A stretch of 13,510 bases of DNA from Cytophagales bacterium (lineage in GTDB: Bacteria > Bacteroidota > Bacteroidia > Cytophagales > Cyclobacteriaceae). The notes under the pieces are model-generated. The model made no database searches and had not been told where the DNA came from. It saw only the letters and a program-made list of their open reading frames with translations. Below are positions 698 through 12,972 of the stretch, piece after piece; positions within the stretch are counted from its first letter, which is position 1; each line of letters starts with the position of its first letter. The stretch is from NCBI GenBank assembly GCA_003537495.1, contig DPSB01000583.1:1618-15127 (forward strand), read 5' to 3'. The position numbers were made by a program, and so were the translations under genes.

Positions 698-1201
698 ATG
701 GCATTACTTGAAAAGAAAATGGTAATTAAGAAGTCCATCTTGCCGGGAGCAGGAAAAGGACTTTTTACAAAAGTGTTTATACCAAAAGGAACCCGCATTG
801 TAGAATACAAAGGCGAGATTGTTACCTGGAAAGAAGTAGAGAAGATGGCCGATGACCGGAATGGGTACGTATTCTTCTTCAACAATCAACATTGTATTGA
901 TGCCTGGAAAACTAAAAAAGGAATTGCACATTATGCCAATGATGCAAGGGGTCTGGTGCGCATAGAAGGAGTAAAAAATAATTCGGAATACGTAACTGAA
1001 AAGAAGCGGTGTTACATTGAAGCAATGCGCGACATTCCCGCGGGCTCTGAAATTTTAGTAGGATATGGTGGCGAATATTGGCAGGCTATCCGGTACAACA
1101 TTAGGTTAGAGCAACGGAACAAAGAGAAGGAAGGGAAGAAAGTTAGTAAGAAGGTAGAGTTACCGCATCACATCGCCACGAAGCGTAGGAGTAAGAAGTA
1201 A
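698..1201 (+). CDS. SET-domain protein (putative protein-lysine methyltransferase) with basic tail
   Basis: This 167-residue protein is essentially a minimal SET domain. The N-terminal GxG-type motif lies at residues 17-23 (GAGKGLF), the YKGE motif at 37-40, a NDARG segment at 81-85 in the place of the usual NHSCxPN motif, and a C-terminal EILVGYG motif at 118-124 supplying the active-site Tyr. SET domains transfer a methyl group from S-adenosylmethionine to lysine. In bacteria the targets are mostly unknown. Residues after about 135 form a Lys/Arg-rich tail ending KRRSKK, which could bind nucleic acid or an acidic partner (inference). The ATG at 698 is the first in frame; a second Met at residue 8 is a possible alternative start. 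The gene lies 45 nt after the permease and converges on another SET gene. Confidence 0.85.
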   Translation: MALLEKKMVIKKSILPGAGKGLFTKVFIPKGTRIVEYKGEIVTWKEVEKMADDRNGYVFFFNNQHCIDAWKTKKGIAHYANDARGLVRIEGVKNNSEYVTEKKRCYIEAMRDIPAGSEILVGYGGEYWQAIRYNIRLEQRNKEKEGKKVSKKVELPHHIATKRRSKK

Positions 1202-2204: not shown

Positions 2205-2238
2205 TTGAAATTTTAAAGATTTTTTTGAGCCAGTTTTG
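2205..2238 (+). promoter_or_regulatory. Candidate promoter of the pheA leader and operon
   Basis: CAGTTTTG at 2231-2238 matches TAnnTTTG except at its first base. TTG at 2205-2207 lies 23 nt upstream, within the loose spacing seen in Bacteroidetes promoters. Transcription would begin near 2244, leaving about 40 nt before the leader ORF. This placement is what the attenuator requires, since any start must lie upstream of 2284. Confidence 0.35.
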
Positions 2239-2283
2239 CACAAACAGATTTTTTCATCTTTCTTAGAACCAGAATTGAGACGA

Positions 2284-2361
2284 ATGATCACCAACCGATT
2301 TTATTTCTTTTACTTTTTTTATCAATCCCCTGCGGGACTTGAAAGAGAATCGGTTTGTTAA
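2284..2361 (+). CDS. Phe/Tyr-rich leader peptide of the aromatic operon attenuator
   Basis: This 25-codon ORF starts ATG ATC ACC and ends TAA at 2359-2361. Codons 6-13 read FYFFYFFY, so eight consecutive codons (2299-2322) specify only Phe or Tyr. The peptide then continues QSPAGLERESVC. Such a run just ahead of the gene for prephenate dehydratase is the signature of a leader peptide like E. coli PheL, which has runs of Phe. The presence of three Tyr codons fits an operon that makes both amino acids. The leader is followed by a strong terminator 26 nt after its stop. There is no Shine-Dalgarno sequence, as is common in this phylum. The peptide itself is probably not functional; its translation is the sensor. 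The ORF is too short for ordinary gene calling. The codon run and position are seen; the role is inferred. Confidence 0.88.
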   Translation: MITNRFYFFYFFYQSPAGLERESVC

Positions 2362-2386
2362 GAAATAATAAAACGAAAGAAACTCA

Positions 2387-2418
2387 GAAAGTCCCTCCGA
2401 AAGAGGGACTTTCTTTTT
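2387..2418 (+). terminator. Intrinsic terminator of the attenuator
   Basis: GAAAGTCCCTC (2387-2397) and GAGGGACTTTC (2403-2413) form a perfect 11-bp stem with loop CGAAA, followed by TTTTT (2414-2418). It lies only 5 nt before the ATG of pheA. It therefore cannot end an upstream gene: the lipoprotein is on the other strand, and the only upstream plus-strand ORF is the leader. It is best read as a conditional terminator in the pheA 5' leader. Confidence 0.92.
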
Positions 2419-2423
2419 GATGT

Positions 2424-3266
2424 ATGAGCAAAAAGAAAAAACTGAAGATCGCCATTCAAGGCATAGCTGCCAGCTTCCACGAGGTGGCAGCCTTAACGTA
2501 CTTTCAAGAGCCGATTCAAACCGTAGAATGCCTGAGTTTTCATGCCTTATGCGAATCGCTGAAGAAAGGCGAATCAGACTATGCGGTAATGGCCATAGAA
2601 AACTCTATCGCGGGAAGCATTTTGCCCAACTACTTTTTGCTGCAGGAATATCACTTCTCGATTATCGGTGAAGTTTATCTGCCCATACACATGCACCTGC
2701 TGGCATTGCCCGGTGTTAAGCTGAATGATCTTACCAGTATCGAGTCGCACCCGATGGCCATTCGGCAGTGTACGGATTTCCTTTACAAGTTAAATGGCGT
2801 CCAGATTTTAGAGAGCGAAGACACAGCTCTTTCGGCACGCAAAGTGAAAGAACAAAAACTAAAAACAACAGCAGCCATTGCTAACGAGTATGCCGCCAAA
2901 AAATTTGGGTTGAATATTTTAGAGAAACGCATCGAAACGCATAAGAAAAACTTTACCCGGTTTCTTATCCTTACCCGCAAAATCAAAACTACACCCGATA
3001 GCAACAAAGCCTCATTGTATTTTGAAGTTGCCAATGAAGTGGGTAGCCTGGCCGAAGCTTTGATGACCTTTAAGAACAATAGCATCAATCTTTCCAAAAT
3101 TCAATCGATACCCATTATTGGTAAACCCAGTGAATATTCCATTCACATAGATGTGGAGTGGAAGAAACGCAAAAGCTACGATGTGGCAATTGGTGAGGTG
3201 CTGCGGCAAGTAAAGAACCTGAACATTCTAGGGGAATACAAAAAAGCAAAAATTGAATACAAGTAA
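2424..3266 (+). CDS. pheA: Prephenate dehydratase (monofunctional)
   Basis: The enzyme converts prephenate to phenylpyruvate in the Phe branch. Of 280 residues, about 7-185 form the catalytic PDT domain, with ENSIAGS at 59-65, SHPMAIRQC at 108-116 and the catalytic-type TRF at 178-180. About 196-275 form an ACT regulatory domain, with GSLAEAL at 207-213 in place of the GAL motif. The ESRP motif that helps bind inhibitory Phe in well-studied enzymes reads QSIP here (227-230), so feedback by Phe may be altered. There is no N-terminal chorismate mutase domain, unlike E. coli PheA; that activity is supplied by the fusion at the end of this operon. The ATG at 2424 is chosen because it starts the conserved frame; an ATG at 2420 is out of frame. 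It is the first structural gene after the attenuator. Confidence 0.95.
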   Translation: MSKKKKLKIAIQGIAASFHEVAALTYFQEPIQTVECLSFHALCESLKKGESDYAVMAIENSIAGSILPNYFLLQEYHFSIIGEVYLPIHMHLLALPGVKLNDLTSIESHPMAIRQCTDFLYKLNGVQILESEDTALSARKVKEQKLKTTAAIANEYAAKKFGLNILEKRIETHKKNFTRFLILTRKIKTTPDSNKASLYFEVANEVGSLAEALMTFKNNSINLSKIQSIPIIGKPSEYSIHIDVEWKKRKSYDVAIGEVLRQVKNLNILGEYKKAKIEYK

Positions 3267-3267
3267 C

Positions 3268-4464
3268 ATGATTAAAACTGCAAACCGGATTGCCAATGTA
3301 GAAGAGTATTACTTCAGCCGGAAGTTGGCGGAAGTACGCGGGTTGGATACACCCACACATCCGGTAATTAACCTGGGTATCGGTAGTCCCGATCTGGCCC
3401 CCGCTGCATCGGTTATTGAAGCATTGAATGTAACCGCACAAAAAGCAAACAGTCATGGCTATCAGAATTATAAAGGCATACCGGCTTTGCGCGAAGGTGT
3501 AAAAGCATTCTACAAGAATACATATGGCGTTAACCTGAATGCTGAGAATGAAATCCTTCCGCTCATGGGTTCGAAGGAAGGCATCATGCATATTGCTATG
3601 GCTTTTGTAAATGAAGGCGAAGAGGTTTTGATTCCCGATCCGGGTTATCCCACGTACTCATCGGTAGCTAAATTGGTTGGAGCAAAAGTACGAACCTATC
3701 AACTTCAGGAATCGCTCGATTGGGGAATTGATGTAGAAGCATTGAAGCGATCTGATTTGTCGAACGTAAAAATCATGTGGGTAAATTTTCCGCACATGCC
3801 TACCGGTAGAACCGCATCTCAGCAAGAGTTGAAAGCGTTGGTTGATCTTGCCCGCGAAAACAATTTTCTGATTGTAAATGATAATCCGTATTCGTTAATC
3901 TTAAACGATAATCCGCAGAGCATTCTTGCCATAGAAGGAGCTGCCGATGTAGCGCTAGAATTGAACTCGCTGAGTAAATCGCACAACATGGCTGGTTGGC
4001 GCATTGGATGGGTAGCGGGTAACAAAGATTTAATTGATGCCGTGCTACGCGTAAAGAGCAATATGGATAGCGGCATGTTTCTGGGTTTGCAACAGGCTGC
4101 TGCTGAAGCTTTGAAGAATGGAAAGGAATGGTTTACCGAGTTAAATGCAGTTTATAAAAAAAGAAGAACGGCTGCCCGAAAGATTTTAGATGTTTTAGGC
4201 TGTTCCTATTCCGAAAAGCAATCGGGCTTGTTTGTTTGGGCTAAGGCTCCTGCGCATGTAGCCGATGTGGAGAAGTGGATTGATGAAGTACTTTATGCCA
4301 CGCATGTGTTTATAACGCCTGGTTTTATTTTTGGCGAAGGTGGTTCACGTTTTATACGCATCTCACTTTGTGCTACAGAAGAAAAGTTACAAGAAGCCCT
4401 TGTCAGGATTCAAAAGTTCGTGGATGAAAAATCAAGCGTTTCCAATCTAACATCTCAAGTCTGA
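3268..4464 (+). CDS. PLP-dependent class I/II aminotransferase, probably aromatic
   Basis: The ATG at 3268 lies 1 nt after the pheA stop and starts a 398-residue protein; an upstream TTG at 3253 would overlap pheA and is less likely. It is a fold-type I aminotransferase related to aspartate and LL-diaminopimelate aminotransferases. The PLP-binding Lys is K237 in SLSKSHNMAGWRIG; D205 and Y208 in NDNPY contact the cofactor; and the C-terminal FIRIS segment supplies the substrate carboxylate-binding Arg. The usual N(N/H)PTG motif is PHMPTG (175-180), so Met177 replaces the Asn that normally bonds the PLP 3'-oxygen. Its place between pheA and tyrA indicates transamination of phenylpyruvate, 4-hydroxyphenylpyruvate or prephenate. 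The family call is firm; the exact substrate is inferred from context. Confidence 0.9.
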   Translation: MIKTANRIANVEEYYFSRKLAEVRGLDTPTHPVINLGIGSPDLAPAASVIEALNVTAQKANSHGYQNYKGIPALREGVKAFYKNTYGVNLNAENEILPLMGSKEGIMHIAMAFVNEGEEVLIPDPGYPTYSSVAKLVGAKVRTYQLQESLDWGIDVEALKRSDLSNVKIMWVNFPHMPTGRTASQQELKALVDLARENNFLIVNDNPYSLILNDNPQSILAIEGAADVALELNSLSKSHNMAGWRIGWVAGNKDLIDAVLRVKSNMDSGMFLGLQQAAAEALKNGKEWFTELNAVYKKRRTAARKILDVLGCSYSEKQSGLFVWAKAPAHVADVEKWIDEVLYATHVFITPGFIFGEGGSRFIRISLCATEEKLQEALVRIQKFVDEKSSVSNLTSQV

Positions 4465-4469
4465 ATAAA

Positions 4470-5333
4470 ATGAAAACAACAATTGTTGGATTGGGTTTGA
4501 TTGGTGGTTCCATTGCATTGGGTTTGCGCAGAGCAGGGATCGCCACCGAATTGATAGGAGTAGATGCGAATGCTGCCAATGGATTGAAAGCGGTGGAGAT
4601 TGGCTTGGTAGATAAAATCTTAACAGAAGACAAAGCTCTTTCAACGGCCGATTTGATTGTGTTGGCTATTCCAGTAAATGCGTTGAATGCATTTTTACCA
4701 GCGGTGTTGGATATTGTGAAGAAGGGGGCTGTGGTTATTGATGGTGGATCAACCAAAACATCTATTTGTAAATCGGTGGCCAACCACCCAAAACGAAATC
4801 AGTTTGTGGCAGCTCACCCCATTGCCGGTACTGAAAACTCAGGTCCAACGGCAGCATTCGATGGTTTGTTTAAAGGTAAGACCAACATTATTTGCGAAGC
4901 CGGTAAATCTTCGGTGGAAGCATTGAATACTGCTATGAAAGTTTTTGATGCATTGGAAATGAAAACCATTTTTATGGAAGCCGATGAACACGATCGGCAT
5001 GTAGCGTATGTATCGCATCTCTCGCACGTGAGTTCCTTTTTGCTGGGTCAAACTGTGTTGGATATTGAGAAAGACGAAAAGAATATCTTTGATCTGGCCG
5101 GTAGTGGTTTTGCCTCTACGGTACGGTTAGCTAAAAGTTCGCCCGATATGTGGGCACCCATCTTTGAACAAAATGTAGAGTATCTGAGCCAGGCATTGCT
5201 GGAATACATCATGCACCTGCAAAAATTTCATTACCACTTAATGAAGCGCGACACAAAAGAGTTGCACCGCATTATGTCTAAGGCGAATGAGATTCGCAGG
5301 GTATTGGATCAGAGCGATAAACCCAAAACGTAA
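4470..5333 (+). CDS. tyrA: Prephenate dehydrogenase
   Basis: This 287-residue enzyme oxidatively decarboxylates prephenate to 4-hydroxyphenylpyruvate in the Tyr branch. The N-terminal Rossmann fold has GLGLIGGS at 7-14 and an Asp at the end of strand 2 (D32), favouring NAD over NADP. HPIAG at 116-120 contains the active-site His, and SHLSH at 182-186 lies in the helical substrate domain. There is no chorismate mutase and no ACT domain: the length matches the minimal dehydrogenase form. Feedback by Tyr may therefore be weak or act differently, and control could rest on the leader attenuator. The gene begins 5 nt after the aminotransferase stop, clearly in the same operon. The sequence does not distinguish arogenate from prephenate use with certainty. 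Confidence 0.93.
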   Translation: MKTTIVGLGLIGGSIALGLRRAGIATELIGVDANAANGLKAVEIGLVDKILTEDKALSTADLIVLAIPVNALNAFLPAVLDIVKKGAVVIDGGSTKTSICKSVANHPKRNQFVAAHPIAGTENSGPTAAFDGLFKGKTNIICEAGKSSVEALNTAMKVFDALEMKTIFMEADEHDRHVAYVSHLSHVSSFLLGQTVLDIEKDEKNIFDLAGSGFASTVRLAKSSPDMWAPIFEQNVEYLSQALLEYIMHLQKFHYHLMKRDTKELHRIMSKANEIRRVLDQSDKPKT

Positions 5334-5393: not shown

Positions 5394-6497
5394 ATGACAA
5401 AGAAAGGATTACAACTCGAACCCATCTCATCCTGGATGAAGACCAGCAGACCCGTTATCATTAGCGGTCCGTGCAGTGCAGAGACAGAAGAACAAACAAT
5501 CGCGACAGCTAAACAAGTTGCGGCTACTGGCAAGGTGCATGCGTTGCGTGCCGGTATCTGGAAGCCGCGCACAAGACCTGGCCAATACGAAGGTGCCGGT
5601 GATATAGGTTTAAAATGGTTGGTGCAAGCGGGTAAAGAAACTGGGTTACCGGTAACCACTGAAGTTGCCAATGCGGCCCACGTGGAAGCGGCATTAAAAG
5701 CCGGTGTAAATTTTTTATGGGTAGGTGCGCGCACCACGGTAAATCCATTCTCGGTTCAGGAAGTTGCCGATGCTTTAAAAGGTGTTGACATTCCGGTGTT
5801 GGTAAAAAATCCTATTAACCCGGATGTCGAGTTGTGGCTGGGTGCGCTGGAACGTTTGAACAAGGCAGGTATTACCAAGTTGGCTGCCATTCATCGTGGA
5901 TTCTCTTCATTCGAGAAAGGCCCGTTTCGTAATGCACCGATGTGGGATCTGGCTATCGAATTAAAAACCCGGGGTCCTGAATTGGATATGATTTGCGATC
6001 CAAGTCACATCGCTGGTAATCGCGATTTGATTGCCTTCATTTCGCAGAAAGCACTTGATCTGGATATGGCGGGTTTGATGATTGAGAGTCATATTAACCC
6101 TGATGCTGCATGGAGCGATGCCAAACAACAAGTTACTCCAGCTGTGCTGGGTAAAATCATTAGTGAGTTGGTAGTTAGAACTGCGTCTGTGGAGAATAAG
6201 ACTTTCAAAGACACGTTGAGTATTTTGCGTGAGCAGATTGACCAGTTGGATGATGAAATTATGCAACGCTTATCGCAGCGCATGAAAATCTCAGAGAAGA
6301 TTGGACAGTATAAGAAAGAAAATAACGTAACCATCCTGCAGGTAAACCGCTGGGAAGAAATTGTACAAACCCGTATTGCTTTATGTAAGGCAATGGGATT
6401 AAACGAAGAGTTTACAAACGATTTGCTGAAGTTGATTCACCATGAGTCGATACAGGTACAGACTAAAGTGATGAATCAAATTGCAGAGCGGGTGTGA
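5394..6497 (+). CDS. aroF: DAHP synthase (type I-beta) fused to AroQ chorismate mutase
   Basis: This 367-residue protein has two domains. Residues 1-263 form a type I-beta 3-deoxy-7-phosphoheptulonate synthase, which condenses phosphoenolpyruvate with erythrose 4-phosphate: GPCS at 25-28 (metal-binding Cys), KPRT at 57-60, IHRGF at 166-170, CDPSH at 201-205 and ESH at 231-233. Residues 270-360 form an AroQ-type chorismate mutase helical domain, with LREQIDQLD at 278-286, QRM near 295-297 and NRWEE at 318-322. The same fusion occurs in other Bacteroidetes, where the mutase domain passes prephenate inhibition to the synthase. Here it supplies the mutase missing from both pheA and tyrA. The 60-nt gap after tyrA holds no terminator; TAATTTTA at 5379-5386 could be a weak internal promoter box. 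Confidence 0.94.
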   Translation: MTKKGLQLEPISSWMKTSRPVIISGPCSAETEEQTIATAKQVAATGKVHALRAGIWKPRTRPGQYEGAGDIGLKWLVQAGKETGLPVTTEVANAAHVEAALKAGVNFLWVGARTTVNPFSVQEVADALKGVDIPVLVKNPINPDVELWLGALERLNKAGITKLAAIHRGFSSFEKGPFRNAPMWDLAIELKTRGPELDMICDPSHIAGNRDLIAFISQKALDLDMAGLMIESHINPDAAWSDAKQQVTPAVLGKIISELVVRTASVENKTFKDTLSILREQIDQLDDEIMQRLSQRMKISEKIGQYKKENNVTILQVNRWEEIVQTRIALCKAMGLNEEFTNDLLKLIHHESIQVQTKVMNQIAERV

Positions 6498-7425: not shown

Positions 7426-10400
7426 ATGAAAAAAGCTCTTATTGGTCTGTTGGTAGTTGGCGTAGCAGCCGCAGGTATCTACTACTTCGCTTTCCGTAAA
7501 ACGGAACAACCCGTTAACTCAACCATCAACCCCGCCTTTGGTCAGTACATTACTTCTTATACTGCCGGTGTTATCGGGTCGGGCTCACCCATCCGTGTAG
7601 TGCTTTCGCATGATGTAGCCGAAGAAACAGCGGTGGGGTCTGAAACAACCCTTAAATTATTTGATCTCAAACCATCCGTAAAGGGAACTACCGTTTGGGT
7701 TGACAAGCGCACGCTTGAGTTCAAACCCGAGGCGCGTCTTATTTCGGGTCAGATCTATAAAGTAGACTTTAGCCTAAGCCGGTTGATGGAAGTCCCTGCC
7801 GATCTCAAAACTTTTGAATTCTCGCTGCAGGTAATTCCACAAAACTTCGAGGTTTCGGTTGATAACATAAAGCCGTATGTAAAAACGGATTTAAAGCGCC
7901 AGAAAATTGAGGGTGTGGTGTACACAGCCGACTTTGCTGAAAATGAATCGGTTGAAAAAATGATTGCTGCAAATCAGGAGGGTACTTCGCTAAAAGTAAG
8001 TTGGACTCATACTGGCGAAGGCAAAACACATGCTTTTGTGGTGGAAGATGTAGCCCGTAAAGATGCAGCCAGTAAAGTTACATTGGCATTTGCCGGTGCT
8101 TCTCTTAATGTAGAACATCAGGAAGAACGTGAAGTAGAAATTCCTGCGCTGGGTGACTTTAAAGTGGTGAATGTCCGCGTAGAGCAAGGCACCAGCCAAC
8201 AGGTTGTTGTTCAGTTTTCCGATCCGCTTAACGAAACTCAGAATCTGGAAGGACTTATTCGTATTTCGGAATTAGCAAGTCTTGATTTTGAGGTGAAGGA
8301 CAATGAAATCAAAGTGTTTCCGCCAGTACGCCAAACAGGCTCGCGCACCATTACCATCGAAGCCGGAGTAAAAAATATTCTCAACTATAAAATGAATGAA
8401 GCGGCTACGTTCGATGTAGCGTTTGAACAAACACTACCGGCTGTGCGCTTTGTAGGTAAAGGAAGTATTCTGCCATCAACCGATGGTTTGATTATGCCCT
8501 TTGAAGCTGTGAACCTGAAGTCGGTAGATGTAAAGGTGATTAAGATTTATGAAGATAACGTGCTTCAGTTTTTACAGGTAAATGATTTTGATGGTAGCCA
8601 GGAACTGAGGCGTGTGGGTCGACCTGTATTAAGTAAAACTATCTCACTTGAAAATGCAGGAGTAGCCGATTTAGGAAAGTGGAATCGCTTTACGCTTGAT
8701 CTGTCTACGTTGATTCAGGCTGAGCAAGGTGCGATCTATCAGGTGCGCATCAGTTTTAAAAAATCTTACCTTGCTTATGTGTGCGAAGGTGGTGAAGAAA
8801 CCACCACCACTGAAGGAACCTTTGAGCAATGGGATGGTGATGATGGAGAAGGCGAAGAGAGTTATTGGGATTCGTACGATGATTATTATTACTACGATGA
8901 CTACGAATGGTCGGAACGCGATAACCCTTGCCACTCTTCTTACTACACAGGCAATCGAAACATCAAACGAAATGTATTAGCATCTGATCTTGGCTTATTA
9001 GCCAAACGTGGTGGCGATGATAATACGTTGGTAGTAGTGAATGATCTTAAAACAACCTTACCACTTTCGGGAGTTGAGGTTGAGTTGTACGATTACCAGC
9101 AACAAATAATTGCCACCGCTAAAACAGATAATGACGGTAAAGCAATCTTACAATCACCTAAAAAACCATTTGCCATTGTAGCTAAGAACGGAGTTCAACG
9201 TGGCTTCATGAAAGTACAAGGTGGAGAATCGCTTTCGCTGAGTAATTTTAATGTGAGTGGTGAGTATGTACAGAACGGACTGAAAGGATTTTTGTATGGC
9301 GAACGGGGAGTTTGGCGGCCGGGCGATTCACTTTACCTCAGTTTTATTCTGGAAGATAAAAACAAGTTGTTGCCAGCTTCGCATCCGGTAGTGTTTGAAT
9401 TGCAGAATCCACAAGGCCAGGTTACTACCCGTTTGGTGCGTTCATCATCCGAAAATGGTTTTTACAAATTTGCAACCGCTACCGCAGCCGATGCGCCAAC
9501 CGGTAATTGGTTAGGCCGTGTAAAAGTAGGTGGTACCGAGTTTCAACAATTCTTAAAAATTGAAACCGTTAAGCCAAACCGGTTAAAAATCAATCTTGAC
9601 TTTGGTGTAGATAAACTTACTGCGGGTAACAATAATGTATCGGGCAATCTGAAAGTAAACTGGCTGCACGGTGCGCCCGGAAAAAACCTGCGTGCTCAAT
9701 TTGATGTGCTACTCACCAAAGGCACAACCAAATTCGATCAGTATAAAGAGTATGTGTTTGACGATCCATCCATTGATTTTTACAGTGAAGCTCAAACCAT
9801 TTTTGAAGGAAATACCGATGCCAACGGAAATGCACAAGTAAATGCAAACCTGGAAGTTAATGGTGAAGCACCCGGTACACTCAATGCTGTGTTCAGGGGT
9901 AAGGTGTTTGAAGAGAGTGGTAACTTTAGTATTGATCGCTTTAGTATTCCATTCTATCCATATGAAGCGCTAACAGGTATCAAACTACCTAAGGGAGATA
10001 CCTGGGGTTTATTGCGCACTGATACTATCCAGCGTGTAGATCTGGTCACAGTAGATGCTGATGGTAATCCACTCTCTCGGACAATAGAGTTATCTGTTTA
10101 TAAGGTAAAGGGGTATTGGTGGTGGGACGGCTCGGAAGGTTCGGTAAATTTTATGTCGGGTAATTATTCGCAACCCATTGCTACAGGGCGAGTAAGTACG
10201 GTAAACGGTAAAGGCTCTTGGAATTTTGAAGTTAAGTATCCGGAGTGGGGTCGCTTCTTTGTAAAAGCTTACGATCCGCAAAGTGGACATACAACTGGCA
10301 AAGTGGTGTACATCGATTGGCCGGGTTGGGCTGGTCGTGCGCGCAACGAAGGCGAAGGTGCTACCATGCTTTCGTTTTCATCCGACAAGCAAGTTTACAA

Positions 10401-12972
10401 TGTAGGTGAGAAAGCCATGTTGGTTATTCCGGGTAGCGAAAAAGGTCGCGCGCTTATCAGCATCGAAAACGGAAGTAAAGTATTGCAAACCTATTGGCTC
10501 GAAACTCAGAAAGGCGACAACCAATTTACATTCGATGTTACCAAAGAGATGACACCGAATGTTTTTGTGAACATTACCTTATTGCAGCCACACGCACAAA
10601 CCACCAACGATTTACCGATACGATTGTATGGAGTAATTCCGATTCAGGTAGAAGATCCAAATACACATCTTGAACCAGTTATTGCCATGCCCGATGTGTT
10701 GGAGCCCGGTAAAGAAGTGGTTATTAAAGTAAGTGAAAAATCAAAACGCAAGATGACCTATACGCTTGCAATTGTCGATGAAGGCCTACTTGATCTCACG
10801 CGCTTCACCACTCCCGATGCCTGGAATAAGTTTTATGCGCGCGAAGCGTTGGGTGTAACTACATGGGATCTGTACGATCAGGTAATGGGTTCATTGGGTG
10901 GAAGAGTAGAGCGGTTGCTGGCATTGGGTGGCGATGCTGAGCTGGCAGCCAAAGAAGATGATGCAAAGTCAAATCGTTTTAAACCAGTTGTAAAATTCTT
11001 TGGGCCGATTACCCTTTCGGGTGGAAGTAATGAGCATAAGTTTATCATGCCACAATACATCGGCTCGGTTAAAACTATGCTGGTAGCTGGATATGAAGGT
11101 GCCTACGGTAAAACCGAAAAGGCAACACCGGTGCGCAAGCCACTAATGGTGCTGGCCACCTTGCCGCGCGTGCTCGGTCCAGAAGAACAAGTTAAACTAC
11201 CAATTACATTATTCAAGAGTGAGAACAATATTAAGAATGTGAAGGTGGAAATTAAGGTAAGTGGGCCGCTCGGTATAGTAGATGAATCTTCGCGCACGGT
11301 GGCGATGAACGAAAGTGATCTTACACTCGACTTTGCATTGAACGTGAAGAGCGAAACCGGATTTGCGAAAGTAACAGTTACCGCAACATCTGGAAGTTAT
11401 TCCGCAACCGATGAAATTGAAATTGAAGTTCGCAATCCGAATCCACCGGTTACACAAGTTGCCGATGTAGTGTTGGATGCCGGTAAAACCTGGAACACAA
11501 CTGTAACTCCGTTTGGTGTAGCCGGAACAAACTTGGCAACACTCGAAATTTCAAGTTTGCCACCGGTTAACCTCGGCCAGCGCATGCGCTACCTTTTGCA
11601 ATATCCGTATGGTTGTATAGAACAAACTACTTCATCAGTCTTTCCGCAATTGTATCTCGATAAAGTAAAAGCGTTAACCGATGCGGAGAAAACTACTATT
11701 CAACGCAATGTTACTGCTGGAGTAGAACGATTAAAAACTTTTGTGAATAGTGATGGTGGCTTTGCTTACTGGCCCGGTAGTGGCGATTCTGATAGTTGGG
11801 GCAGTACCTATGCCGGACATTTCTTAATTGAGGCTGAAGCGAAAGGTTACTATGTACCCAACGATATGATCAGGCGTTGGAAAAAGTATCAGAAGAACAA
11901 AGCCCAAAGCTGGCGCAAAGCACAAGAGTATGGTAGCAGTGAATTAATACAAGCCTACCGACTTTACACATTGGCACTTGCTGGCGATGCTGAACTGGGT
12001 GCGATGAACCGCTTGCGCGAACAAGGTAACCTGCCATCAACCGCAGCATGGATGTTGGCCGCAGCGTATGTAAAAGCCGGACAACCGGAAGCTGCTAAAA
12101 AGTTGATTGAAAAATTACCGACACAAGTTAAACCGTACCAGGAGTTGGCATATTCCTATGGCTCCGACTTGCGTGATAAGGCAATTATTCTGGAGACATT
12201 AATCCTGTTGAATGACAGAACTCGTGCGTTTGAAATTGTAAAAGAACTTTCGGTTGCCTTAAGCGATTTTAATTATTGGATGAACACGCAAACATTAGCC
12301 TGGAGTTTAAAATCGGTTGGTTCATTTGCGAGTGGTGAAAAAGGTGATCTGAAATTTTCATACACGTATAATGGCAAAGAAGTAACCACAGGCACTGATT
12401 TACCGGTTGCGTCTATTGTTTTACCAGCAGGAAGTAAACCAGCCGATCTGAAAGTAGTAAGTGCCAGCAAAGCTGTTTTGTTTGCACGTGTAATACAAGA
12501 AGGAGTACCCGCACGCGGCACAGAGGAAGATAGTGAGAAGAATTTGACACTAGGCGTTAGTTACACCAAAACCGATGGCACTCCGTTAGATCCAGCCACA
12601 TTGGAGCAAGGGACTGAGTTTGTAGCCACGGTTACGGTATTCAATCCGGGTATGCGTGGACTTTATAAAAACCTTGCACTCAATCAGATTTTTCCTTCGG
12701 GTTGGGAGATAAACAACTTACGCTTAACAGGCGATGATGCGGCAAAGATTACCGGTGATGTACCTACCTACCAAGACATCCGCGATGATCGGGTTTATAC
12801 GTACTTTGATCTGGGTGCGCGGCAATCCAAAACGTTTAAGGTGATGCTTACGGCCAGCTATGCAGGTTCGTATTACTTACCGGCTGTAAGTTGCGAAGCC
12901 ATGTACGATAACAACATCTATGCACGCAAGAAGGGTAAGGTAGTGGAGGTTGTAAAGCGAGTGGTGCAATAG
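7426..12972 (+). CDS. Large bacterial alpha-2-macroglobulin-like protein with thioester
   Basis: The protein has 1848 residues, in the usual range for bacterial A2M proteins. Residues 4-23 are a hydrophobic segment without a lipobox Cys, so it is either anchored by a transmembrane helix or exported, unlike the lipoprotein YfhM of E. coli. A chain of beta-rich MG domains follows. GVWRPGDSLYL near 627-637 is typical of bacterial members. A segment reading YTLAIVDEGLLDL near 1110 marks the MG6-like domain, and the variable stretch around 1157-1185 is the likely protease bait region. Cys1397 to Gln1400 (YGCIEQ) form the thioester motif within the alpha-helical thioester domain, then MG-like C-terminal domains. 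Such proteins are thought to trap proteases in the periplasm covalently. An acidic Tyr/Asp-rich insert (about 466-496) lies between Cys453 and Cys502. Only four Cys are present in total. Confidence 0.93.
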   Translation: MKKALIGLLVVGVAAAGIYYFAFRKTEQPVNSTINPAFGQYITSYTAGVIGSGSPIRVVLSHDVAEETAVGSETTLKLFDLKPSVKGTTVWVDKRTLEFKPEARLISGQIYKVDFSLSRLMEVPADLKTFEFSLQVIPQNFEVSVDNIKPYVKTDLKRQKIEGVVYTADFAENESVEKMIAANQEGTSLKVSWTHTGEGKTHAFVVEDVARKDAASKVTLAFAGASLNVEHQEEREVEIPALGDFKVVNVRVEQGTSQQVVVQFSDPLNETQNLEGLIRISELASLDFEVKDNEIKVFPPVRQTGSRTITIEAGVKNILNYKMNEAATFDVAFEQTLPAVRFVGKGSILPSTDGLIMPFEAVNLKSVDVKVIKIYEDNVLQFLQVNDFDGSQELRRVGRPVLSKTISLENAGVADLGKWNRFTLDLSTLIQAEQGAIYQVRISFKKSYLAYVCEGGEETTTTEGTFEQWDGDDGEGEESYWDSYDDYYYYDDYEWSERDNPCHSSYYTGNRNIKRNVLASDLGLLAKRGGDDNTLVVVNDLKTTLPLSGVEVELYDYQQQIIATAKTDNDGKAILQSPKKPFAIVAKNGVQRGFMKVQGGESLSLSNFNVSGEYVQNGLKGFLYGERGVWRPGDSLYLSFILEDKNKLLPASHPVVFELQNPQGQVTTRLVRSSSENGFYKFATATAADAPTGNWLGRVKVGGTEFQQFLKIETVKPNRLKINLDFGVDKLTAGNNNVSGNLKVNWLHGAPGKNLRAQFDVLLTKGTTKFDQYKEYVFDDPSIDFYSEAQTIFEGNTDANGNAQVNANLEVNGEAPGTLNAVFRGKVFEESGNFSIDRFSIPFYPYEALTGIKLPKGDTWGLLRTDTIQRVDLVTVDADGNPLSRTIELSVYKVKGYWWWDGSEGSVNFMSGNYSQPIATGRVSTVNGKGSWNFEVKYPEWGRFFVKAYDPQSGHTTGKVVYIDWPGWAGRARNEGEGATMLSFSSDKQVYNVGEKAMLVIPGSEKGRALISIENGSKVLQTYWLETQKGDNQFTFDVTKEMTPNVFVNITLLQPHAQTTNDLPIRLYGVIPIQVEDPNTHLEPVIAMPDVLEPGKEVVIKVSEKSKRKMTYTLAIVDEGLLDLTRFTTPDAWNKFYAREALGVTTWDLYDQVMGSLGGRVERLLALGGDAELAAKEDDAKSNRFKPVVKFFGPITLSGGSNEHKFIMPQYIGSVKTMLVAGYEGAYGKTEKATPVRKPLMVLATLPRVLGPEEQVKLPITLFKSENNIKNVKVEIKVSGPLGIVDESSRTVAMNESDLTLDFALNVKSETGFAKVTVTATSGSYSATDEIEIEVRNPNPPVTQVADVVLDAGKTWNTTVTPFGVAGTNLATLEISSLPPVNLGQRMRYLLQYPYGCIEQTTSSVFPQLYLDKVKALTDAEKTTIQRNVTAGVERLKTFVNSDGGFAYWPGSGDSDSWGSTYAGHFLIEAEAKGYYVPNDMIRRWKKYQKNKAQSWRKAQEYGSSELIQAYRLYTLALAGDAELGAMNRLREQGNLPSTAAWMLAAAYVKAGQPEAAKKLIEKLPTQVKPYQELAYSYGSDLRDKAIILETLILLNDRTRAFEIVKELSVALSDFNYWMNTQTLAWSLKSVGSFASGEKGDLKFSYTYNGKEVTTGTDLPVASIVLPAGSKPADLKVVSASKAVLFARVIQEGVPARGTEEDSEKNLTLGVSYTKTDGTPLDPATLEQGTEFVATVTVFNPGMRGLYKNLALNQIFPSGWEINNLRLTGDDAAKITGDVPTYQDIRDDRVYTYFDLGARQSKTFKVMLTASYAGSYYLPAVSCEAMYDNNIYARKKGKVVEVVKRVVQ

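What the first reader, a model, noticed from the sequence alone, without database searches (positions are those of the whole stretch)
2284..2361. Unannotated leader peptide with eight consecutive Phe/Tyr codons ahead of pheA
A 25-codon ORF holds FYFFYFFY in a row and sits just upstream of a terminator and of the Phe/Tyr biosynthesis operon. E. coli PheL is the classical Phe-only counterpart. Here the mixture of five Phe and three Tyr codons would allow starvation for either product to be sensed, matching an operon that makes both. The ORF is too short for gene finders and would normally be missed.
Basis: partly seen in the sequence, partly recalled or inferred. Interest (0 to 1): 0.85.

Follow-up and report, generated by a model that had tools for sequence, protein, structure and literature searches.

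The report
Phe/Tyr leader-peptide attenuator before pheA
A tiny unannotated gene made largely of phenylalanine and tyrosine codons sits in front of the genes that make those two amino acids and very probably switches them on when either runs short; the same device recurs in many related bacteria, in a group where such switches had barely been described.

Summary
Window 2284-2361 is a 25-codon ORF (MITNRFYFFYFFYQSPAGLERESVC) with eight Phe/Tyr codons in a row; resampled sequence gave none. An intrinsic terminator (2386-2414) follows, then pheA, an aminotransferase (AT), tyrA and DAHP synthase/chorismate mutase.

76 of 79 pheA loci with upstream sequence carry the leader, 75 with intact frame. 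In a phylum draw it was found before 43 of the 50 PheA-nearest genes examined (35 by a stricter cut) and 0 of 40 remoter ones. All 81 non-redundant runs hold both Phe and Tyr. Strand 2 (GGGACTT) starts 7-11 nt after the last aromatic codon and co-varies with terminator strand 3. Related genomes have His runs before hisG (22 of 30) and WWW before trpE (21 of 30), neither on the reverse strand. Seven leader-like ORFs before AT-tyrA genes without pheA are Tyr-only (5), Tyr-rich (1) or mixed (1).

Verdict: a classical ribosome-mediated attenuator in a two-amino-acid version, widespread in Bacteroidota. Prior art found: a remark on Flavobacterium psychrophilum (PMC9723704). Function is inferred; nothing was tested at the bench.

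The parts
2235..2266 (+). putative Bacteroidota-type promoter: TTTG (2235-2238), 20 nt, TTTCTTAG (2259-2266), a weak match to TAnnTTTG
   Evidence: the motif scores >=9 of 10 in 20 of 77 loci (3.2% of shuffles); best position 23-28 nt before the ATG in 28 of 77. The window's own match is weak: exact pattern absent; the scan's best window position was elsewhere with 8 of 10. I placed this element by hand, by likeness to L003; it also scores 8 by hand count.
2284..2361 (+). leader peptide ORF, MITNRFYFFYFFYQSPAGLERESVC, stop 2359-2361
2299..2322 (+). regulatory run of eight Phe/Tyr codons
2293..2300 (+). strand 1 AACCGATT, pairs with 2348-2355
2322..2342 (+). small protector hairpin (5' arm 2322-2329, 3' arm 2334-2342) that hides strand 2
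   Evidence: MFE, pairs read from the dot-bracket; the CCC:GGG core is also in the 42-sequence consensus fold, with no double changes
2334..2340 (+). strand 2 GGGACTT (antiterminator 5' arm); 2345-2347 GAG extends it to 2383-2385 CTC
2348..2355 (+). strand 1' AATCGGTT
2389..2395 (+). strand 3 AAGTCCC: pairs with strand 2 (antiterminator) or with the 3' arm (terminator)
2386..2418 (+). intrinsic terminator: arms 2386-2397 and 2403-2414, T-rich tail to 2418
2424..3266 (+). pheA, prephenate dehydratase
3268..4464 (+). aminotransferase of the operon
4470..5333 (+). tyrA, prephenate dehydrogenase (above curated cut-off NF006307)
5394..6497 (+). DAHP synthase fused to chorismate mutase

Best explanation
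It is a ribosome-mediated transcription attenuator that reads charged tRNA-Phe and tRNA-Tyr together. RNA polymerase starts just upstream of 2284 (inferred). A ribosome translates the 25-codon leader. If Phe-tRNA or Tyr-tRNA is scarce it stalls within 2299-2322; it then covers or melts strand 1 or the CCC arm of the protector hairpin. Strand 2 (2334-2340) is freed to pair with strand 3 (2389-2395), the terminator does not form in time, and pheA-AT-tyrA-DAHPS/CM is transcribed. If both are plentiful the ribosome runs to the stop and leaves, the 1:1' and protector hairpins form, strand 3 pairs with the terminator's 3' arm, and transcription stops before pheA. Shown: ORF, codon composition, terminator, co-varying alternative pairings, constant spacing, conservation, contrast with hisG and trpE leaders. 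Inferred: translation, stalling, termination, response to starvation.
For: Conservation: 76 of 79 loci with upstream sequence, 75 with intact frame. Phylum draw, 90 upstreams: 43 at >=5 aromatic residues in 8 (reverse strand 7, shuffles 6.8), 35 at >=6 (0 and 1.4), 31 at >=7 (0 and 0.2); 39 of those 43 leaders have a terminator within 120 nt. Composition: of codons one step from Phe, Tyr 263, Cys 4, Ser 3, Ile/Leu/Val 0; both F and Y in 81 of 81 non-redundant runs. Structure: strands 2:3 93.2% paired over 21 distinct triplets, 9 double-change cells, 0 of 500 shuffles reach pairing, double changes or covariation score (14 and 35 of 500 reach the two type counts). Strands 3:4 97.3%, 11 double-change cells, 0 of 500 for the same three (23 and 3 for the others). 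Strand 1:1' at one fixed offset: 49 double-change cells, 0 of 500, but only 59.6% paired (1 of 500) and the two type counts no better than shuffles (264 and 221 of 500). Own partners pair better than foreign ones, 0 of 2000 permutations (kinship not controlled). Spacing: run end to strand 2 is 9.3 +/- 0.9 nt, strand 2 to stop 21.9 +/- 8.8. The GGG of strand 2 lies in all three frames (29/11/6 of 46), so it is kept as RNA, not peptide. Masking a stalled ribosome raises strand 2:3 pairing in the window from 0.04 to 0.61-0.78 before strand 4 exists. Specificity: His runs at hisG and WWW at trpE, with 0 of 30 and 0 of 30 upstreams reaching 6 Phe/Tyr in 8; Tyr-only ORFs at AT-tyrA.
Against: No experiment. 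In many homologues the untranslated RNA is already predicted to form the antiterminator before strand 4 exists (mean 0.70), so protection looks weak there. With the full RNA the terminator is favoured whatever the ribosome does (0.94-0.96), so the switch must be kinetic. In 39 of 76 leaders, including this window (0.76), the stop lies far enough downstream that a ribosome there leaves strand 2 mostly exposed (mean 0.86); termination in plenty must then rest on ribosome release, which was not modelled. pheA operons with no tyrA within the stretch (L072, L073, L075, L076) still have mixed leaders. 7 of the 50 closer phylum genes and L079, L080 have none found directly before pheA; in one of the seven (L122 = G116) a leader stands at the operon head. 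One trpE leader (L254) has YFFYFWW, so contrast is not perfect.
Confidence: 0.88

Rival explanations
1. Phe-only attenuator, like E. coli pheL; the Tyr codons are neutral drift from Phe codons (TTY to TAY).
For: Phe and Tyr codons differ by one base; Phe is commoner (346 vs 263). Rfam Phe_leader is the best family match (44.2 bits).
Against: Drift would also give Ser, Cys, Leu, Ile and Val codons: Tyr 263 against 7 in all. Leaders were chosen for aromatic content, which biases against the others, but the near loci lost only 3 of 79. No Phe-only run in 81. Tyr-only ORFs exist at AT-tyrA genes.
Confidence: 0.08
2. The terminator and U-rich stretch are an ordinary RNA element (sRNA, RNA-binding site), and the ORF is a by-product of a U-rich tract.
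For: A Bacteroides sRNA family, BTnc231, matches weakly (22.4 bits, threshold 80.4).
Against: A U-tract would allow Leu codons (TTA, TTG); none occur in 81 runs. Start codon, frame and run are kept while length and other residues drift. BTnc231 reached its cut-off in 0 of 148 phylum genomes, 7 of 148 at E <= 0.001.
Confidence: 0.02
3. Control of pheA translation (start-site sequestration or coupling) rather than of transcription termination.
For: In the window the hairpin ends 9 nt before the pheA start.
Against: The hairpin ends from about 5 to about 200 nt before pheA in relatives and keeps its T tail; in four genomes the leader stands before the DAHP synthase gene instead.
Confidence: 0.02

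Closest known systems
E. coli pheL/pheA attenuator (Rfam RF01859 Phe_leader)
   Same: short leader ORF with a run of the sensed codons, mutually exclusive antiterminator and terminator, just upstream of pheA; weak model match over the full length (44.2 bits)
   Different: below Rfam's threshold of 55; codons are Phe and Tyr instead of Phe alone (PheL composition recalled); controls an operon for both amino acids; Bacteroidota
Multi-amino-acid leaders (thrL Thr/Ile, ilvL Ile/Val/Leu; recalled, no call)
   Same: one leader reads more than one amino acid linked to the same operon
   Different: a Phe+Tyr combination did not turn up in the paper searches (two aimed at it)
Structured 5' element upstream of pheA in Flavobacterium psychrophilum (PMC9723704; section 19 and passages seen)
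   Same: same gene and phylum; authors report strong clues for leader-peptide attenuation before amino-acid operons, and separately a pheA 5' element conserved in the family without Rfam hit
   Different: the section seen gives no peptide, codons, pairing or dual sensing; supplements could not be read here

Membership tests
classical ribosome-mediated attenuator | short leader ORF rich in codons for the amino acids the operon makes | tested here: met
   hisG and trpE contrast
classical ribosome-mediated attenuator | intrinsic terminator between leader and first gene | tested here: met
   window; near loci (L075 and L076 set by hand); 39 of 43 leaders of the phylum draw
classical ribosome-mediated attenuator | mutually exclusive antiterminator supported by co-variation | tested here: met
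classical ribosome-mediated attenuator | protector (1:2) hairpin that favours termination when translation is not stalled | tested here: inconclusive
   conserved pairings, but predicted protection is weak in many homologues
classical ribosome-mediated attenuator | read-through rises on starvation and needs leader translation | not testable with these tools
   needs a bench test
Rfam RF01859 Phe_leader | score at or above the gathering threshold (55 bits) | tested here: not met
   window 44.2 bits; 0 of 13 related loci reach it; among 20 more distant loci the one match at E <= 0.1 is 34.3 bits
Rfam RF04180 BTnc231 | score at or above the gathering threshold (80.4 bits) | tested here: not met
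   window 22.4 bits; 0 of 148 phylum genomes over cut-off

The most novel reading that the evidence does not exclude
Bacteroidota, which lack Shine-Dalgarno initiation, run a set of classical leader-peptide attenuators (Phe/Tyr, Tyr, Trp, His, perhaps Thr/Ile and Ile/Val) whose codon content follows the content of the operon behind them. The pheA leader is an OR-gate for two amino acids. The set implies that the leading ribosome tracks RNA polymerase closely enough to control termination in these bacteria. (Odds lowered from 0.65 on recount: the ilvD signal did not exceed its reverse-strand control.)
Probability: 0.6. Interest if true: 0.75.

Novelty: new variant of a known kind. Interest (0 to 1): 0.62.

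Why it matters
Classical attenuation is a textbook system of Proteobacteria; a 2010 paper knew it elsewhere only from Actinobacteria besides its own Firmicutes cases (PMC2965389, passages read). A conserved, amino-acid-matched set in Bacteroidota gives a regulatory layer that annotation misses. It offers a dual Phe/Tyr sensor with natural Tyr-only counterparts for comparison, and makes transcription-translation coupling testable in a phylum without Shine-Dalgarno initiation.

Tried and rejected
BTnc231 as the Bacteroides counterpart: searched, not supported. Remoter PheA genes (L131-L170): 0 of 40 with an aromatic leader. For many of L131-L150 the first fetch was too short for long PheA forms, so 30 longer stretches (15 of the same genomes, 15 new) were taken: 5 of 30 had a 5-of-8 ORF, lying 395-1946 nt upstream and looking like chance. 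A Phe leader at 17 prephenate dehydratase loci of 18 genomes, most with split operons: none reached 5 aromatic in 8, four reached 4. Ile/Val leaders at ilvD: 10 of 30 at >=6 in 8, but 10 of 30 on the reverse strand too, and 5 against 3 at >=7, so single peptides such as MFANIIVVVVVILCTQTV are only suggestive. First orientation of L081-L110 was wrong for - strand matches; corrected. The hisG, trpE, ilvD and thrA-type leaders were not checked for pairing strands. The Tyr-rich ORFs of L339 and L340 have no visible terminator. Fisher tests ignore kinship and were thought of after seeing the case.

Full report
What is there. The window holds a 25-codon ORF at 2284-2361 with FYFFYFFY at 2299-2322, a terminator at 2386-2414, then pheA, an aminotransferase (AT), tyrA and a DAHP synthase/chorismate mutase. 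Named close PheA matches are mostly Cyclobacteriaceae or other Cytophagales/Bacteroidetes assemblies. No whole genome is held for the window.

Chance. No comparable ORF arose in 300 resamplings of the window or 20000 of the upstream region.

Near relatives. Of 80 pheA loci (the best 80 of 165 confirmed), 79 have upstream sequence. 76 carry an aromatic-rich leader (>=6 of 8 Phe/Tyr/Trp) followed by a terminator; 75 have an intact frame, L007 a one-base break. The terminators of L075 and L076 were set by hand. Of the other three, L077 has a weaker YYFWY ORF and L079 and L080 have none. Peptides drift outside the run: for example MNANTFFYFYYYFFRPKTGL, MTNSRFYFYYFFGSPAGLERAVC, MKRFNAYFWFYYYYFKALPGFERVAVCC. 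67 of 80 loci show pheA > AT > tyrA > DAHPS/CM, 7 are cut by a contig end after AT or tyrA, 4 show pheA > DAHPS/CM, 2 show pheA > AT > tyrA.

Phylum draw. 172 of 198 genomes matched PheA. I took upstream sequence of 90: the 30 best, the next 20, and 40 chosen lower in the list. A leader was found in 43 of the first 50 (L081-L130; eight of them only at 5 of 8, kept for an RFYF or TFYF motif) and in 0 of the other 40. L081-L084 repeat leaders of the near set. A covariance model of 42 leaders found 12 of 59 relatives and 16 of 198 phylum genomes, a few at other genes and at least one (L314) with no aromatic ORF, so RNA sequence alone detects it poorly.

Why Phe and Tyr. In 81 non-redundant runs: Phe 346, Tyr 263, Trp 20, all others 46; both Phe and Tyr in every run; a Trp in 20 runs. 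A codon one step from Phe is Tyr 263 times, Ser or Cys 7 times, never Leu, Ile or Val. Leaders were chosen by aromatic content, counting Phe, Tyr and Trp alike.

RNA architecture. Strand 2, located as the best 8-nt match to strand 3 after the run, starts 7-11 nt after the last aromatic codon in all 76 leaders measured. Strands 2, 3 and 4 change together (GGGGCTT/AAGCCCC/GGGGCTT; GGGGATT/AATCCCC/GGGGATT). L073 was dropped before the block counts, L007 before the spacing, composition and folding counts. Strand 1 just before the run pairs with a strand 7 nt after strand 2 (AACCGATT/AATCGGTT, AAGCGATT/AATCGCTT, AACACATT/GGTGTGTT); at that offset 69.6% of positions pair, against 24-53% at nineteen other offsets. 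On 49 distinct rows this helix shows 49 double-change cells (0 of 500 shuffles) but only 59.6% pairing, and two type counts no better than shuffles, so it does not hold for all. In the window a small hairpin hides strand 2. Masking a stalled ribosome raises antiterminator pairing there from 0.04 to 0.61-0.78; a ribosome at the stop codon gives 0.76. Over 76 leaders the untranslated RNA already gives 0.70 and stalled ones 0.88-0.94. A ribosome at the stop gives 0.00 in 37 short leaders and a mean of 0.86 in 39 long ones. In full-length RNA the terminator is favoured in every scenario (means 0.94-0.96). How termination is secured in the long class is open. Strand 2 falls in all three reading frames.

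Initiation. Upstream of the ATG, position -3 is A or G in 84% and T in 4%, and -6 is A in 54%, in line with F. johnsoniae (PMC6847099, passages read); the A-enrichment at -12 and -13 reported there is not evident (37% and 28%). A promoter-like motif scores >=9 of 10 in 20 of 77 loci against 3.2% of shuffles; in the window it is weak.

Specificity controls (loci, thirty each). hisG: >=4 His in 8 in 22 of 30, reverse strand 0. trpE (best matches to TIGR00564, none over its cut-off): WWW in 21 of 30, reverse strand 0. Phe/Tyr >=6 in 8: 0 of 30 and 0 of 30; counting Trp too, 1 of 30 at hisG (L234) and 2 of 30 at trpE, one with YFFYFWW (L254). ilvD: Ile/Leu/Val >=6 in 10 of 30 but also in 10 of 30 on the reverse strand, so no case there.

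AT-tyrA genes. Of 30 loci, 10 follow pheA and show no leader of their own. Of the other 20, L326, L346 and L349 show too little upstream to judge. Seven have a leader-like ORF: Tyr only in L327, L328, L329, L339 and L340, six Tyr and one Phe in L338, five Tyr and three Phe in L332. Terminators are seen in the printed sequence of L327, L328, L329, L338 and L332, not of L339 or L340. Tyr-only against 0 of 81 pheA-type runs: p 5e-7 for all seven; 7e-6 with the sister pair L327/L328 counted once; 1e-4 with terminators only; 2e-3 with both restrictions. These ignore kinship. In four genomes a mixed leader stands before the DAHP synthase gene (L308-L310, L313); in three of them pheA lies downstream on the same contig and strand, in G224 on another contig.

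Known work. Searches. PMC9723704 (section 19 and passages) reports leader-peptide clues before amino-acid operons and a pheA 5' element in F. psychrophilum. PMC2965389 (passages) lists earlier phyla. PMC7366714, PMC4833913, PMC1262725 and PMC6847099 were seen as passages; all others only as listings. None of what I saw describes a Phe+Tyr leader; the library lacks most subscription journals and supplements could not be read. No Rfam family passed its threshold on the window, 13 pheA loci or 20 other leader loci.

Verdict. Ordinary in principle, new in form and place as far as I could search: a two-amino-acid version of a classical attenuator, widespread in Bacteroidota, with good comparative support and no bench test.

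Noticed in passing
L213, L219, L222, L215, L226 and others (hisG upstream): His-rich leader ORFs before hisG in 22 of 30 loci, such as MKLALHHHLHHHCS and MNITLNISLHHHHHVTHTMRGKVLF.
   Followed up: partly
L240, L248, L250, L253, L264, L265 and others (trpE upstream): Leader ORFs with three Trp codons in a row in 21 of 30 loci, some with Phe or Tyr just before (YWWWH, FWWWH).
   Followed up: partly
L273, L287, L289, L297 (ilvD upstream): Single Ile/Val-rich ORFs such as MFANIIVVVVVILCTQTV; as a set not above the reverse-strand control.
   Followed up: partly
L311, L312: A Thr/Ile-rich ORF (L311: MIFNTSIITTIIITTG, read by eye from the printed DNA) and a terminator before a gene that starts like aspartokinase (my reading); resembles E. 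coli thrL (recalled).
   Followed up: no
L327, L328, L329, L338: Tyr-only or Tyr-rich leaders with terminator before aminotransferase-tyrA genes that lack pheA in front.
   Followed up: partly
L308, L309, L310, L313: Mixed Phe/Tyr leader before a DAHP synthase gene; in three of the four genomes pheA lies further downstream.
   Followed up: partly
L007:4857-4997: One-base break in the T-rich run of the leader; could be an assembly error in a homopolymer.
   Followed up: no
L077: A contig labelled Acidobacteria carries the same operon order and a weak aromatic leader (YYFWY): transfer or misbinning.
   Followed up: no
window 698-1201: Short protein with a weak match (29 bits, cut-off 550) to NF043024 AnkI/LegAS4; looks like a SET-domain protein (my reading), not tested further.
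   Followed up: no
window 7426-12972: 1848-residue secreted-looking protein, resembling bacterial alpha-2-macroglobulin by eye; not tested.
   Followed up: no
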